Shown here in pieces: positions 27,299 to 34,004 of a stretch of 37,394 bases of DNA (position 1 is its first letter; every line of letters starts with the position of its first letter). The stretch covers positions 1 to 37,394 of the forward strand of contig JABUFA010000035.1 in NCBI GenBank assembly GCA_013314755.1. Direction: 5' to 3'. The translations under genes and the position numbers were made by a program. The notes under the pieces are model-generated. The model did no database searches and was not told the origin of the DNA. It saw only the letters and a program-made list of their open reading frames with translations. Source of the DNA: Chthonomonadia bacterium (GTDB lineage Bacteria > Armatimonadota > HRBIN16).

Positions 27299-28699
27299 TC
27301 AGTAGCGTTCGATTCCCCACACGGTGCGAACGCTTATGCCAAACTCATCACCTTCGTCTGCGCTGTGTGTCCAGAACAAAGAGTAGTCCCACAGCTGGGA
27401 CGCCGGGCGGTAGCGCACAAAAGCTCCATAGGAGCTACCAGCCAGCCCGCTGGGGAGGCTGTACTCGAACCCTGCCTGCCACTGCCAGCGGCGCAGGATT
27501 GGCTCGCCCTGCCCGTCAAAGGAGGATAACCTGTCCATCCACGCAACCATCACCCCCCATAACATGCCCGAGGTTTCCTGGTCGTCTGCAGAGTCTGACC
27601 AGACGTACTGCCCCGACAGGTTGCAGAAAACGCCGCCGGTCAACCTCAGAGGTATCTGCTTCGACAGGGCAATTCCGACGTTGTTCCACCGCCCGCCGTG
27701 CCGAAACGAACGCAGTCCCCCCGTCAAAGCTAGATGAGGAGCCAGCGCCGAACGCACCAGTGCGGAGCGTGCCTCCTGCAGGTAGGTGTCAAACGGCGTG
27801 AAGAACCGGTCGAACTCTGTGCCGTCCACCCCGAAAACGTCCAGCCCCTCGTCCACCGCTGCTCCAAATGGTGAAACCAGCGTCTCGTAGCGATTAGCCA
27901 GCATTTCGAACTGTGTCGGGTCCTCTCCTCGCTCCTCCACCAGCAGCTCCAGCTGCAGAATCTCCATATGCAGGGGCTGAATGAGCTGATTCAGCCGTCC
28001 GACCGCGCGAGACAGCTCATGTATTGCGGTAATTAGTCGCCCAATGGCGCGGTTGTCCATGCCGCTTAGCCGGCGAATCTCCTGCCCAAACCCTCTTACC
28101 GCGAGAGAGGCACGATGCTTCTCCGGCGTCAGGTCATGACGCAAAACCAGCCCGAACCCATCATCTGGAGTGTCGACGCGCAGGTACTGCGCCGTGACGT
28201 CAAGCGCCGCGACATCGTCGCTGAAGGTAGCCCCAGCAATAAGCAAGAAACTGTTCGCATCCGCGCGGAACTGCACGCTCGGATAAAGAGCCACCCTGTA
28301 CGGAACCGGTATCTGCTTTCGCTCAAACCGGGAGAGTGTATCCTCCAGTGTTTGTAACGGCGGGCGAATGAACGGGAGCAGGAAATCCAGGCGGTTTAGC
28401 TTGTCGAGGAAATCGGCTTTATCCCGCGGGCGGTCGAGCAACTCGGCAATCTCCGGCAAGACTTTCGCCAGCTCGTGAGCGCTCATGCGAAGGTTGTCCC
28501 ATACTTTGTTCGCGTCGGTGGTCGTCTGTACGAGGCGACTTTTGTCGTCCATGTCCGTGAGGGATGTGGACAGGTTGATAGAAGAGGTGCTGCCTGTGCC
28601 GGGAAACCGCCACTTACCCTGAGCAGCAGCTACCCGGCAGACAGCAATTACCATCAGCGCACAGCACAAAGCCACACAATCTCTTCTCCACGCAGCCAT
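27299..28699 (-). CDS. Secreted beta-barrel-like outer-membrane protein (last gene of the CHAT operon)
   Basis: The 466-residue protein starts MAAWRRDCVALCCALMVIAV and has a signal peptide likely cleaved after VAAAQG. The next ~80 residues are helical (KVWDNLRMSAHELAKVLPE). The middle and C-terminal parts show alternating hydrophobic strands, and the chain ends in VRTVWGIERY with a terminal aromatic residue, as outer-membrane barrels do. A coiled-coil-like segment (about 230-280) interrupts the strands. I do not recognise a family. ATG 28699 uses TGAGGT, which overlaps the TGA stop of the CHAT gene; the open frame to 28804 is a less likely start. The operon position suggests it is a sensor partner or output of the sigma/CHAT system. 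Confidence 0.6.
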   Translation of the reverse strand: MAAWRRDCVALCCALMVIAVCRVAAAQGKWRFPGTGSTSSINLSTSLTDMDDKSRLVQTTTDANKVWDNLRMSAHELAKVLPEIAELLDRPRDKADFLDKLNRLDFLLPFIRPPLQTLEDTLSRFERKQIPVPYRVALYPSVQFRADANSFLLIAGATFSDDVAALDVTAQYLRVDTPDDGFGLVLRHDLTPEKHRASLAVRGFGQEIRRLSGMDNRAIGRLITAIHELSRAVGRLNQLIQPLHMEILQLELLVEERGEDPTQFEMLANRYETLVSPFGAAVDEGLDVFGVDGTEFDRFFTPFDTYLQEARSALVRSALAPHLALTGGLRSFRHGGRWNNVGIALSKQIPLRLTGGVFCNLSGQYVWSDSADDQETSGMLWGVMVAWMDRLSSFDGQGEPILRRWQWQAGFEYSLPSGLAGSSYGAFVRYRPASQLWDYSLFWTHSADEGDEFGISVRTVWGIERY

Positions 28700-28706
28700 T
28701 TTTACC

Positions 28707-31696: not shown

Positions 31697-32842
31697 TTAC
31701 TCCCTCACCAGTTGCAGGCGCAGTAGCGCGGTGGTGGGCAAAGTGCTGTCGGGTATCCCGGGCACAAAGGCGGTCAGTTCCCTGTACCCCTCCTGCCATG
31801 CGCTTATCTGCCACTCGCCCAATCTCTGCCACGCGAGGGGCGTCAGCAGTAAATCCATCGCCAGCTTATGAGCGGCGTAACTCTGGCGCACCTCTTCAGA
31901 GAGAAAGAGCCGAACGCGGATCTGCCCGTTTACGCATTCCGGCAAGCCCTGTACCTGCGCCCACACGGGCGAGCCCTCCTCGACTTCCAGAGGGATATTC
32001 ACCCGTCCTCCACCAGTCAATGGCGGCAAATCACCCAGAGCAATGGTCAGCTGTCCCTGGGGAATCTCACCTGCTGGCGGTGAGACCGAAAATGAAGGTA
32101 TCGGGAGGGATACTTCGTAGGTGCTGCCGCGGATGAAATCCTGTACCAGCGGAGCAGATTCCCCGCCAAGGTCCACATACACCGTTATTGCCACACCCGA
32201 TAACTGCTCGGAGGGAAAACCATCATACTGCTGAACGACAAGGCGCAGGTACAGCCTGCCCTCCTGAGTGACTTCAAAACGGTCTACGGTAACCTGCACA
32301 TCCTGGGGCAACCCTTCCGCAAGAAGCACTCGCGCCCGGTCGCCCGCCCGTGCCAGGGCAACCGAAGGCACACGAAGCACCGTAGTCCATCTGTGCCATA
32401 TCCCTCCGAGCAGAGTCAGCACCTCATCCGGCAAAGAAGCACCTTCTGCCATCGTGTTCTGAAGGCGTTCCCACCAGTTCGGCAGGTGCACTACAGCATC
32501 GGTGCGCGCCGTCACAATACCCAGCCACAGCTGTGCCACCTGCGCCCGGAGGTCGTCCCCGTCGGCAATTTTTGTCACGCTTTCTAACGGCATCTGCTGC
32601 AGTGCGCTCAGAATCTTATGTATCTGGATCCATTGCTGGCGGGCGCTGGGGTACGCCGTTAACGCCCCTTCCACCGCTTCCGTTTGCTCCGCAGTTAACA
32701 GTCCCGCGCAATAGCGCACCAGAGTCTCCACATCGGGCAGCCCCCATGCCGGGGGTGCCAGTGCCTTTTGCTCTCGCAACCATTCCCCCAGCCTTTGTGC
32801 GCCGGCGGCGCTCAACGCCTGTTGGGGCTCACGTTGCATCAT
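31697..32842 (-). CDS. Anti-sigma-like soluble protein, candidate CHAT substrate
   Basis: The 381-residue protein has no membrane helix and no signal peptide. Residues 37-83 (VETLVRYCAGLLTAEQTEAV, then VEGALTAYPSARQQW) align in pattern with the zinc-finger anti-sigma fold (zf-HC2), but the CxxC ligands are replaced by YPSA, so it would not bind zinc that way. Residues ~175-300 are beta-rich with Pro/Gly turns and look like one or two Ig-like domains; the end is helical then beta. I do not know a family for the whole. It overlaps the sigma gene by 14 bp and precedes the CHAT gene by 14 nt, a position suited to a sigma inhibitor that the protease could cleave. This is inference. Confidence 0.6.
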   Translation of the reverse strand: MMQREPQQALSAAGAQRLGEWLREQKALAPPAWGLPDVETLVRYCAGLLTAEQTEAVEGALTAYPSARQQWIQIHKILSALQQMPLESVTKIADGDDLRAQVAQLWLGIVTARTDAVVHLPNWWERLQNTMAEGASLPDEVLTLLGGIWHRWTTVLRVPSVALARAGDRARVLLAEGLPQDVQVTVDRFEVTQEGRLYLRLVVQQYDGFPSEQLSGVAITVYVDLGGESAPLVQDFIRGSTYEVSLPIPSFSVSPPAGEIPQGQLTIALGDLPPLTGGGRVNIPLEVEEGSPVWAQVQGLPECVNGQIRVRLFLSEEVRQSYAAHKLAMDLLLTPLAWQRLGEWQISAWQEGYRELTAFVPGIPDSTLPTTALLRLQLVRE

Positions 32843-34004
32843 CCGTCACCCCCTTCCATTGGCGGTAGAACCGGGCAAGCTTCTGCACCAGCCTCCCGTT
32901 GCTCAGCCAGACGTTAAGCATGCCCATCGTGAGGCAGTAACCGGCACGCTCGGCAGCGGGCGCCATTCTCTCATAAATATCAACGTGTGACAGATCATCG
33001 TGATAACAGTATTGCAGGGCAAGCCTCTGCCACAGACCGGCTTCATGCAACACATCGGGGATGTTAACTCCGGGCGTCTGCTCGAAGCGGCTCAGCAGGT
33101 AATCCATCCGCTGACGGAACGGTAACTGCTGGTGCAGTCTTTCCAGTAGTACCTGCATCTGCTCAGCCTGATAGGGACAATCGGTGCGCTGGAGGATTTT
33201 GTTCGGAGGCAATGCATAACGATAGCGCCACAATATCAACCATGCCTCATCACGCGACATCCCATCCGGCAAACCGTCCAGATTAAGCCCTTGCATGATA
33301 TACTGTACAAGTACATCCATCTGTTTCTCGCTGTAAGGTTCGGGCAGCTGAAGCAGAGATCCCGCCAGTCGGTCGTTGGAGTAGTACAGCTCGTGATAAC
33401 AGAGGCTTCTCAGCACACCGGTATCACTGAGCCACGCGCCGAGAGTGCGACGGTCTACCCGAACTCCCGACGGCGCCAGCAGGCGCATCACCTCCTGCCA
33501 GGAAGCCTCGTGCAGGTAGTACAATTGCGCGGCGAGCAGCTGTACCTGGCGTGTTTGAGGCGAGACCTGGGGCGACAATCCCAACCACAGGATGTCCGCT
33601 GCGGAATACAGCTCATGGGCGAGCATTGCGGCAGCCAGGGAATCGGCAACATCTGTGATCCCTGCGATTTCTGACTCCTCTACATCGTCCAGAGAGAGTG
33701 TCTCCTGAACGTAACGGCGACGCATATCCACCATACAGCGGTAAGCGGTGCGCCGAATGAATGCGAACCATGCCTGTTCCCCCTGATTGCGGAAGCGTGT
33801 TCGGAACGTCCACACTCGCAGGAAAGCATCCTGGATTACGTCTTCACGGTCATCCGGGTTATGTAGCCACGTGCTGAGGTATCGGAGCAGGTAAGGACGG
33901 CTGATTTCCCACAGTTGTTCCCATGCTTCGCGTGCCCTGTCTTCGTTGGGGCTCGTCAGCAGGTCAATCGCCCGCGTCAGTTTTGCGTGCGTGTTTGTTT
34001 GCAC
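32829..34004 (-). CDS. ECF-like sigma-70 factor with long C-terminal extension
   Basis: The 391-residue protein begins with a sigma-70 region 2 (about 25-98): YLLRYLSTWLHNPDDREDVI, QDAFLRVWTF for core binding, and WFAFIRRTAYRCMVDMRRR for -10 recognition. A usual ECF sigma is ~180-200 residues. Here the remaining ~290 residues are helical; a standard region 4 is not obvious, though WQEVMRLLAPSGVRVDRRTL could be a diverged helix-turn-helix. It starts at GTG 34004 with a weak ribosome binding site. A TATAAT lies 29 nt upstream. The gene heads the operon and overlaps the anti-sigma-like gene, the standard layout for a sigma factor and its regulator. Confidence 0.8.
   Translation of the reverse strand: MQTNTHAKLTRAIDLLTSPNEDRAREAWEQLWEISRPYLLRYLSTWLHNPDDREDVIQDAFLRVWTFRTRFRNQGEQAWFAFIRRTAYRCMVDMRRRYVQETLSLDDVEESEIAGITDVADSLAAAMLAHELYSAADILWLGLSPQVSPQTRQVQLLAAQLYYLHEASWQEVMRLLAPSGVRVDRRTLGAWLSDTGVLRSLCYHELYYSNDRLAGSLLQLPEPYSEKQMDVLVQYIMQGLNLDGLPDGMSRDEAWLILWRYRYALPPNKILQRTDCPYQAEQMQVLLERLHQQLPFRQRMDYLLSRFEQTPGVNIPDVLHEAGLWQRLALQYCYHDDLSHVDIYERMAPAAERAGYCLTMGMLNVWLSNGRLVQKLARFYRQWKGVTDDAT

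What the first reader, a model, noticed from the sequence alone, without database searches (positions are those of the whole stretch)
27299..34004. Sigma / anti-sigma-like / CHAT-NB-ARC-TPR / barrel operon: a possible CRISPR-free protease-released sigma switch
Seen: four tightly packed minus-strand genes (14-bp overlap, 14-nt gap, stop overlapping the next ribosome binding site). Known: in type III-E CRISPR, TPR-CHAT cleaves Csx30, which restrains the sigma factor RpoE. Inference: here a STAND ATPase sensor is built into the CHAT protease itself, so a ligand sensed by the TPR/NB-ARC part would trigger cleavage of the anti-sigma-like protein and free the sigma factor. That would join NLR-like sensing to transcription, perhaps for defence or envelope stress.
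Basis: partly seen in the sequence, partly recalled or inferred. Interest (0 to 1): 0.88.

Follow-up and report, generated by a model that had tools for sequence, protein, structure and literature searches.

The report
NLR-like protease switch for sigma factor
A conserved bacterial gene set appears to link an immune-receptor-like ATPase with a caspase-like protease to a brake protein that holds a transcription factor, so that a signal sensed inside the cell could release the brake and switch on genes.

Summary
In detail: four tightly packed minus-strand genes encode an ECF-type sigma factor, a 381-aa protein, a CHAT–NB-ARC–TPR protein and a secreted protein. The layout is conserved: relatives of the sigma factor occur in 25 of 291 genomes of the phylum (29 loci); 22 have a relative of the 381-aa protein as partner, 20 of those with a CHAT-STAND gene beside it. 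Catalytic-position His and Cys are kept in 21 of 21 CHAT-STAND proteins. The 381-aa protein is a zinc-less anti-sigma domain (profile match to zf-HC2 anti-sigma domains; shuffles fail) followed by a beta-sandwich region. In the other 7 loci a STAND protein without CHAT follows the sigma gene, and in 3–4 of them it carries the anti-sigma domain itself. A length-variable linker in the brake holds Arg165 (20 of 22), always followed by Gly, Ser or Ala: a candidate cut site. Binding, cleavage, ligand and regulon are untested. It works like Craspase–Csx30 or CalpL/T/S but with an NLR-type sensor and no CRISPR array in the window; its brake is not detectably DUF1822 of the cyanobacterial sigma–DUF1822–CHAT operons. 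The fourth gene is not core.

The parts
32829..34004 (-). ECF-type sigma factor: region 2 (residues about 3-105), possibly a sigma4-like part within about 145-207, then a conserved helical C-terminal extension of about 180 residues
   Evidence: Pfam Sigma70_r2 E 2.1e-7; AlphaFold2 pLDDT 84.8, all helical; VIA-align Z 12.9, rmsd 2.1 over 95 residues to sigmaE region 2 (5or5), looser matches to whole ECF sigma factors over 20-207
31697..32842 (-). anti-sigma-like brake protein, 381 aa: zinc-less anti-sigma domain, linker, beta-sandwich region
   Evidence: 14-bp overlap with the sigma gene
32489..32731 (-). zinc-less anti-sigma domain, residues about 38-118 of the 381-aa protein
   Evidence: hhalign probability 92.1 to 31 zf-HC2 anti-sigma segments, best of 100 column shuffles 0.9; no H...C..C in any of 22 relatives
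32348..32350 (-). Arg165 codon in the interdomain linker: candidate cleavage site (hypothesis)
   Evidence: R in 20 of 22 relatives, followed by G, S or A in all 20; loop with pLDDT block mean 66
31700..32332 (-). beta-sandwich region, residues 171-381
   Evidence: AlphaFold2 model, mostly strands; weak Ig-like/macroglobulin-like fold matches over 179-274, Z 5.4 at most
28707..31682 (-). CHAT-NB-ARC-TPR protein, 991 aa
   Evidence: Pfam; NB-ARC also matched Apaf-1 in PDB sequences E 1.8e-6
30717..31490 (-). CHAT protease domain (residues 65-322) with His213 and Cys258
   Evidence: Pfam CHAT E 9e-31; H213 and C258 in 21 of 21 aligned proteins
29880..30536 (-). NB-ARC (STAND) ATPase domain (residues 383-601)
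   Evidence: Pfam E 6.1e-14; Walker A Lys 20 of 21, Walker B Asp 21 of 21
28728..29564 (-). TPR repeats, the likely sensor (residues about 707-985)
   Evidence: Pfam TPR_12 E 1.1e-33 and kinesin-light-chain-type TPR matches
27299..28699 (-). protein of 466 aa with a signal-peptide-like start; barrel nature unproven; optional part of the operon
   Evidence: hydrophobic stretch from residue 8, Kyte-Doolittle mean 2.48 over 19 aa; direct matches in 3 of 11 first-round loci (L014, L015, L019) and in G186; 3 more of the 11 (L017, L020, L022) have an ORF of like size there that I put into the profile by position, so their match is by construction; no family
34033..34038 (-). TATAAT element upstream of the sigma gene, also found in G183: the operon may be read by the housekeeping sigma factor (tentative)
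   Evidence: sequence; same GTATAATAAG in L014
34094..34687 (+). divergent 197-aa ORF of unknown family, kept beside the operon in G183; possible module member or target
   Evidence: E 5.8e-41 to L014 10098-10571; no Pfam or PADLOC match

Best explanation
This is a cytoplasmic sigma switch. The 381-aa protein binds and restrains the sigma factor through its zinc-less anti-sigma domain. The TPR/NB-ARC part of the CHAT-STAND protein senses an internal signal, binds ATP and oligomerises, and so activates its own CHAT protease, which cuts the 381-aa protein, most likely in the linker between anti-sigma domain and beta-sandwich region (perhaps at Arg165). The weakened brake then lets go and the sigma factor turns on its regulon. 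Shown by computation: the parts, their conservation, the anti-sigma homology, intact protease and ATPase motifs, and natural fusions of anti-sigma domain and STAND sensor. Inferred: sigma binding, sensing, cleavage, site, release.
For: (1) Conserved order: sigma relatives in 25 of 291 genomes (30 rows, 29 loci once the two pieces of G210's gene count as one). 22 of 29 loci have an anti-sigma/sandwich protein as partner; 20 of these have a CHAT-STAND gene adjacent (18 downstream of the brake on the same strand, 1 divergent, 1 convergent); the other 7 of 29 have a STAND protein without CHAT. In G004 the sigma gene and its partners lie at two contig ends, so that joining is inferred. In the first 11 loci the kinship is from direct comparison with the window proteins; in the rest from profiles of those alignments. 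(2) The sigma stop overlaps the next gene in 27 of 27 loci measured, using earliest possible starts. (3) Anti-sigma domain: hhalign 92.1% to 31 zf-HC2 segments of relatives, best of 100 shuffles 0.9%. Searched in 291 genomes, the family profile also finds ordinary anti-sigma proteins: of 9 weak matches confined to this domain one is the L066 fusion, and of the other 8, all fetched, 6 match the zinc-finger profile or adjoin or are fused to an ECF sigma gene. (4) The same domain starts the CHAT-less STAND proteins: E 1.3e-7, 1.9e-5 and 4.9e-4 among 977 ORFs for 3 of 7; a fourth only at 0.0037 in a 7-sequence search. (5) His213 and Cys258 21 of 21, Walker A Lys 20 of 21, Walker B Asp 21 of 21. 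(6) The two sigma-brake pairs without a CHAT gene beside them (G074, G080) lie in genomes with a lone CHAT-NB-ARC gene of 1006 or 1014 aa elsewhere. (7) Arg165 is the second most conserved of 381 positions at 18% median pairwise identity, in a linker of variable length. (8) The window's brake has no transmembrane-like stretch (largest 19-residue Kyte-Doolittle mean 1.09); 21 of 22 brakes stay at or under 1.58.
Against: No binding or cleavage datum. 7 of 29 loci have a STAND protein without CHAT, so the protease is not essential to every version. Arg165 is missing in register in 2 of 22 (L058, L059), both beside a CHAT gene, and is kept in L021 and L064, which have no CHAT neighbour. Conservation of Arg165 could serve folding or docking. 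3 of 7 STAND proteins (L070, L072, L073) show no anti-sigma domain. Some CHAT-STAND copies look weakened: L018 lacks the Walker A Lys, L061's ORF ends at 597 aa, L074 has no NB-ARC hit in Pfam. Brake L016 reaches a Kyte-Doolittle mean of 1.94, above the usual 1.6 for a membrane helix (cut-off recalled). A crude search found no shared promoter motif upstream of 26 sigma genes. The five brake models differ in confidence (pLDDT 85.6 to 66.5), and the helical anti-sigma part was not tested by fold search because Ig-like matches filled the lists.
Confidence: 0.58

Rival explanations
1. Partner switching without cutting: the STAND ATPase binds the anti-sigma protein and, on ATP or ligand binding, pulls it off the sigma factor; CHAT acts elsewhere or only on itself.
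For: STAND proteins without CHAT follow the sigma gene in 7 of 29 loci, and 3-4 of them carry the anti-sigma domain themselves.
Against: Where CHAT is present its His and Cys are kept in 21 of 21; the brake has a conserved Arg motif in a flexible linker. Which form is older was not tested.
Confidence: 0.22
2. Reverse flow: the sigma/anti-sigma pair is an ordinary regulator and the CHAT-STAND protein is its output, a caspase-like death or defence effector encoded in the same operon.
For: Caspase-like and STAND proteins are proposed as parts of conflict systems (PMC8195603, passages); the operon is an accessory module with a clean empty site in G184.
Against: A crude search found no shared promoter motif before the operons, and window and G183 carry a TATAAT element; the natural fusion of anti-sigma domain and STAND suggests that the STAND protein acts on the brake.
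Confidence: 0.14
3. The beta-sandwich region of the brake is itself the sensor (ligand binding), and CHAT-STAND only turns over the complex.
For: The sandwich region makes up half of the brake; the orphan relatives L192 and L193 exist without sigma or CHAT neighbours.
Against: The CHAT-less STAND fusions carry the anti-sigma domain without a sandwich region: the ATPase part follows within the first 145 residues or so.
Confidence: 0.05

Closest known systems
Type III-E CRISPR protease module: Cas7-11, Csx29 (TPR-CHAT), Csx30, CASP-sigma (PMC10028731, abstract and passages seen)
   Same: CHAT protease, an inhibitor of an ECF sigma factor as substrate, sigma factor in one locus; two-part inhibitor in which the N-terminal part binds sigma and the cut falls outside it
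   Different: Trigger there is guide RNA and target RNA; TPR-CHAT order and no STAND ATPase (recalled). Here CHAT comes first, then NB-ARC and TPR; no CRISPR-like repeat array in the window; the brake has a zf-HC2-type anti-sigma domain; no Csx30 chain appeared in the PDB sequence search
CalpL/CalpT/CalpS type III CRISPR system (PMC11417357, passages seen)
   Same: Protease, anti-sigma substrate and ECF sigma factor
   Different: Lon protease with SAVED sensor of cA4 there; CHAT with STAND-TPR here
EACC2-caspase systems with ECF sigma factor and DUF1822 protein (PMC8195603, passages seen); cyanobacterial examples fetched here
   Same: Same three-gene layout, CHAT-family third gene (our CHAT profile E 3e-17 and 4e-16 on two of them), similar size of the middle gene, combination with STAND or CHASE2 sensors
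   Different: Middle proteins not detectably homologous (hhalign 0.2%), first genes match only over one 28-column stretch (1.0%); no anti-sigma domain found in DUF1822; the paper calls DUF1822 a TPR protein and proposes autopeptidase activation
RseA/RsiW-type regulated proteolysis of anti-sigma factors (recalled; mentioned in PMC10028731 passages)
   Same: Brake on an ECF sigma factor removed by protease
   Different: Membrane-bound brakes and envelope signals there (recalled); a brake without a membrane-like stretch and a STAND sensor here
zf-HC2 anti-sigma domains (PF13490)
   Same: Profile homology over 60 columns
   Different: His and Cys ligands absent in 22 of 22; sandwich C-terminus or STAND fusion

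Membership tests
ECF sigma factors | sigma-70 region 2 | tested here: met
   Pfam E 2.1e-7, above cut-off; Z 12.9 to sigmaE region 2
ECF sigma factors | sigma region 4 | tested here: inconclusive
   Pfam region 4 in 1 of 10 family members only (E 0.0043); structure alignments to whole ECF factors extend to residue 207 with large rmsd
Anti-sigma domain, zf-HC2 type | profile homology to known anti-sigma domains | tested here: met
   hhalign 92.1% against 0.9% for the best of 100 shuffles
Anti-sigma domain, zf-HC2 type | H...C..C zinc ligands | tested here: not met
   0 of 22; hence called zinc-less, not a zinc-binding member
Anti-sigma factor (function) | binds and inhibits the cognate sigma factor | not testable with these tools
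   needs binding and transcription assays
CHAT peptidases (PF12770) | CHAT domain with His/Cys dyad | tested here: met
   E 9e-31; H213 and C258 in 21 of 21
STAND / NB-ARC ATPases | NB-ARC domain with Walker A and B | tested here: met
   E 6.1e-14; K395 20 of 21, D468 21 of 21
Type III-E CRISPR (Craspase) | CRISPR array nearby | tested here: not met
   no CRISPR-like direct repeat family in the window, which is the whole contig
Type III-E CRISPR (Craspase) | Cas7-11 effector gene | not tested
   no search for Cas7-11 was made; only some of the window's proteins were scanned with Pfam or PADLOC
Type III-E CRISPR (Craspase) | Csx30 homologue | tested here: inconclusive
   no Csx30 chain among PDB sequence matches of the brake alignment
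EACC2-caspase / ECF / DUF1822 systems | DUF1822 protein | tested here: not met
   no DUF1822 hit in 12 brake proteins; hhalign 0.2% to 8 DUF1822 proteins
EACC2-caspase / ECF / DUF1822 systems | caspase-fold (CHAT) peptidase with sensor domain next to an ECF sigma gene | tested here: met
EACC2-caspase / ECF / DUF1822 systems | EACC2 domain before the peptidase | not tested
   no EACC2 model was available to me

The most novel reading that the evidence does not exclude
A family of bacterial NLR-like switches that act on transcription instead of killing: a STAND ATPase controls an anti-sigma domain either through a built-in CHAT protease that cuts the brake after a conserved linker Arg, or, in sister operons without CHAT, by carrying the anti-sigma domain on its own N-terminus so that the receptor itself holds and releases the sigma factor.
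Probability: 0.35. Interest if true: 0.9.

Novelty: new variant of a known kind. Interest (0 to 1): 0.74.

Why it matters
Protease-released sigma factors are known for envelope stress and for two CRISPR types. Here the sensor would be an NLR-type ATPase, giving bacteria a route from intracellular sensing to a transcriptional programme. The natural series (CHAT-STAND plus free brake; CHAT-STAND elsewhere in the genome; anti-sigma domain fused to STAND without protease) makes the logic testable with few proteins. It may also help to read the uncharacterised cyanobacterial sigma-DUF1822-CHAT operons, which share the layout.

Tried and rejected
DUF1822 as a homologue of the brake: 8 cyanobacterial plasmid operons compared (a ninth, L135, fetched but left out because unannotated); no detectable homology. 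First genes of those operons as sigma relatives: of 8 scanned, one reaches Pfam region 4 weakly (E 3.4e-4, below cut-off), 7 have no sigma match. A common promoter motif in 26 upstream regions, sought as exact 5-mer/4-mer pairs: not above shuffles. Direct search of named genomes with the brake: no relative. That scan is limited by patterns, so spread beyond the phylum is untested rather than excluded. Plasmids: no sigma match at E 1e-3. PDB sequence search with the brake: best E 0.3, chance. PDB fold search with the brake: Ig-like matches only, helical part not covered. Fourth protein in PDB sequences: nothing of note, best E 2.2. L018's fourth gene is a DNA methylase, not a relative; it was in alignment A4 and was dropped afterwards. 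Presence of the Arg motif as a test of CHAT dependence: not usable, because orphan brake L192 has no R-[GSA] in its linker but orphan L193 has one (sequences). Tree of CHAT domains: the TPR-CHAT-type proteins form a clade apart (100/100), but order inside the rest is mostly unresolved.

Literature, all by word search in the held library: no paper with CHAT domain + anti-sigma + sigma factor + STAND + operon; none with Armatimonad + CHAT domain + sigma factor; NB-ARC + anti-sigma factor + sigma factor + tetratricopeptide gave one Streptomyces array paper, listing only; anti-sigma factor + STAND NTPase gave one BREX paper whose passages do not describe such a system; DUF1822 + sigma only PMC8195603. 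Further searches gave the papers cited or listings not followed. PMC7159879 holds none of the searched words.

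
Full report
Observation. Sigma: 32829-34004; 381-aa protein: 31697-32842; CHAT-NB-ARC-TPR: 28707-31682; fourth protein: 27299-28699. The 14-bp overlap, the 14-nt gap and the stop running into the next ribosome-binding site are real. Family scans give sigma-70 region 2, CHAT, NB-ARC and TPR, and nothing for the second and fourth proteins. NCBIfam hints at an anti-sigmaE protein for residues 39-84 of the second (E 0.0047, far below its cut-off).

Conservation. The 381-aa protein alone finds relatives in 12 of 291 genomes of the phylum. 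The phylum is Armatimonadota by the titles of the same contigs in a named collection. A profile of the sigma C-terminal part finds 25 of 291 genomes, 30 rows; two rows in G210 are pieces of one gene at contig ends, leaving 29 loci. I fetched the surroundings of all but the window's own and read them by direct comparison with the window proteins (first 11 loci) and by profiles of our alignments (for the first 11 loci such matches are by construction). 22 of 29 have a relative of the 381-aa protein as partner (for G004 across two contigs, inferred). 20 of these 22 have a CHAT-STAND gene adjacent: 18 downstream of the brake in the same direction, L060 divergent, L071 convergent. The other two, L021 (G074) and L064 (G080), have no CHAT neighbour, but each genome holds a lone CHAT-NB-ARC gene of 1006 or 1014 aa elsewhere. 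The remaining 7 of 29 have, in the partner's place, a STAND protein without CHAT; Pfam sees TPR repeats in 6 of these 7. In 27 of 27 loci measured the sigma stop overlaps the next gene's start region (earliest starts were used, so the larger overlaps are upper bounds). The fourth gene has direct matches in 3 of the first 11 loci (L014, L015, L019) and in G186; L017, L020 and L022 have an ORF of like size in that place whose kinship is not independently shown; none of the 19 later loci matched the profile.

The module is accessory. Within the genus the brake was found in 4 of 10 genomes, and G186 shows the fourth gene and a CHAT piece at a contig end. In G184 queF and the GFO/IDH gene lie about 70 bp apart in the same order, without the operon; in G180 about 0.9 kb lies between them, with a 44-residue match to the divergent ORF.

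What the 381-aa protein is. AlphaFold2 with 9 sequences gives pLDDT 85.6 for the best of five models (the others 81.5 to 66.5): helices to residue 162, then mostly strands to 381. The helical part between about 38 and 118 matches zf-HC2 anti-sigma domains taken from genomes of relatives (31 segments chosen by the H...C..C motif from the loci) with hhalign probability 92.1; column-shuffled versions reach at most 0.9 in 100 trials, and 38 of 39 other segments at most 15.9, the exception being the N-terminus of the CHAT-less STAND proteins at 94.5. The zinc ligands are gone in 22 of 22. A search of the 291 genomes with the whole-family profile matched 27 genomes. Nine weak matches are limited to this domain; one is the L066 fusion. 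Of the other 8, 5 match the zinc-finger profile and 4 adjoin or are fused to an ECF sigma gene, 6 by at least one of the two; L187 and L191 gave no such support. So the domain is of anti-sigma type. Function (binding sigma) is inferred.

Rosetta stone. In the CHAT-less loci the STAND protein's own N-terminus carries this domain: E 1.3e-7 (L066), 1.9e-5 (L063) and 4.9e-4 (L065) among 977 distinct ORFs; L069 only in a 7-sequence search (0.0037); L070, L072 and L073 not at all. Anti-sigma domain and STAND sensor thus occur as one polypeptide in nature. This argues that in the window too the CHAT-STAND protein acts on the brake, and it also suggests that a version can work without protease.

Protease and ATPase. 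Over 21 CHAT-STAND proteins (some cut by contig ends; L061's ORF ends at 597 aa), His209, His213 and Cys258 are kept in 21, Asp288 in 20, Walker A Lys395 in 20 (Ala in L018), Walker B Asp468 in 21. An active protease is therefore probably under selection.

Candidate cut site. In 22 brake proteins with median pairwise identity of 18%, Arg165 is second only to Met1 in conservation: 20 of 22, followed by Gly (13), Ser (6) or Ala (1). It sits in a loop between the helical and sandwich parts (pLDDT block mean 66), and the distance from it to the next conserved Gly varies from 17 to 36 residues. Such a short motif in a variable linker is what a protease site can look like; that some CHAT relatives such as separase cut after Arg is recalled, not tested. 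Against: L058 and L059 lack it in register although they have CHAT; L021 and L064 keep it without a CHAT neighbour (though with one in the genome). A docking role is possible.

Sigma factor. Region 2 is clear (Z 12.9, rmsd 2.1 over 95 residues); a region-4-like part may lie within 145-207, and about 180 further residues are conserved helices of unknown role. The window's brake has no transmembrane-like stretch (largest 19-residue Kyte-Doolittle mean 1.09; 21 of 22 relatives at most 1.58, L016 1.94), so the switch probably sits in the cytoplasm.

Comparison with known systems. In mode of action it resembles Csx29-Csx30-CASP-sigma (PMC10028731, passages) and CalpL/T/S (PMC11417357, passages). 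In layout it resembles the EACC2-caspase operons with ECF sigma factor and DUF1822 protein (PMC8195603, passages), of which I fetched cyanobacterial plasmid examples. CHAT is shared, but middle and first proteins show no homology beyond a short stretch. I therefore file it as a new variant of the kind 'protease-controlled anti-sigma switch', with an NLR-type sensor, not as a member of any of these.

Limits. No experiment. Spread outside the phylum is untested except for a pattern-limited scan and plasmids. The fourth protein's fold is unknown.

Noticed in passing
L192 1628-2746 and L193 5419-6492: Orphan brake-like proteins (family profile E 3e-39 and 3e-36) between an aminotransferase and a Mur-ligase-type gene in G094 and G091, without sigma or CHAT neighbour.
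   Followed up: partly
L153, L157, L158, L159, L160, L161: CHAT proteins of 864-887 aa each next to a gene of 394-425 aa in family f16 genomes: another recurrent CHAT pair, apart from this operon's CHAT in the tree.
   Followed up: no
L184 2799-4040: One 413-aa ORF with sigma regions 2 and 4 followed by an anti-sigma-type domain: a sigma/anti-sigma fusion.
   Followed up: partly
L170 8767-10529: Empty site: queF and GFO/IDH gene about 70 bp apart in G184 where the window carries the operon.
   Followed up: yes
L057 1375-9094: Two CHAT-STAND genes in tandem behind one sigma-brake pair; the brake's frame is broken there.
   Followed up: no
window 34094-34687: Divergent ORF of unknown family kept beside the operon in G183.
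   Followed up: partly
window 11647-11805, 14262-14420, 24225-24383: Three copies of a 159-nt repeat (69-100%); the copy at 24225 lies within an ORF that contains a prepilin-like stretch.
   Followed up: no
L128, L129, L132, L133, L136, L137: Cyanobacterial plasmid operons of a 412-476-aa gene, DUF1822 and a CHAT-CHASE2 or CHAT-TPR gene; the first gene is annotated hypothetical in these six.
   Followed up: partly
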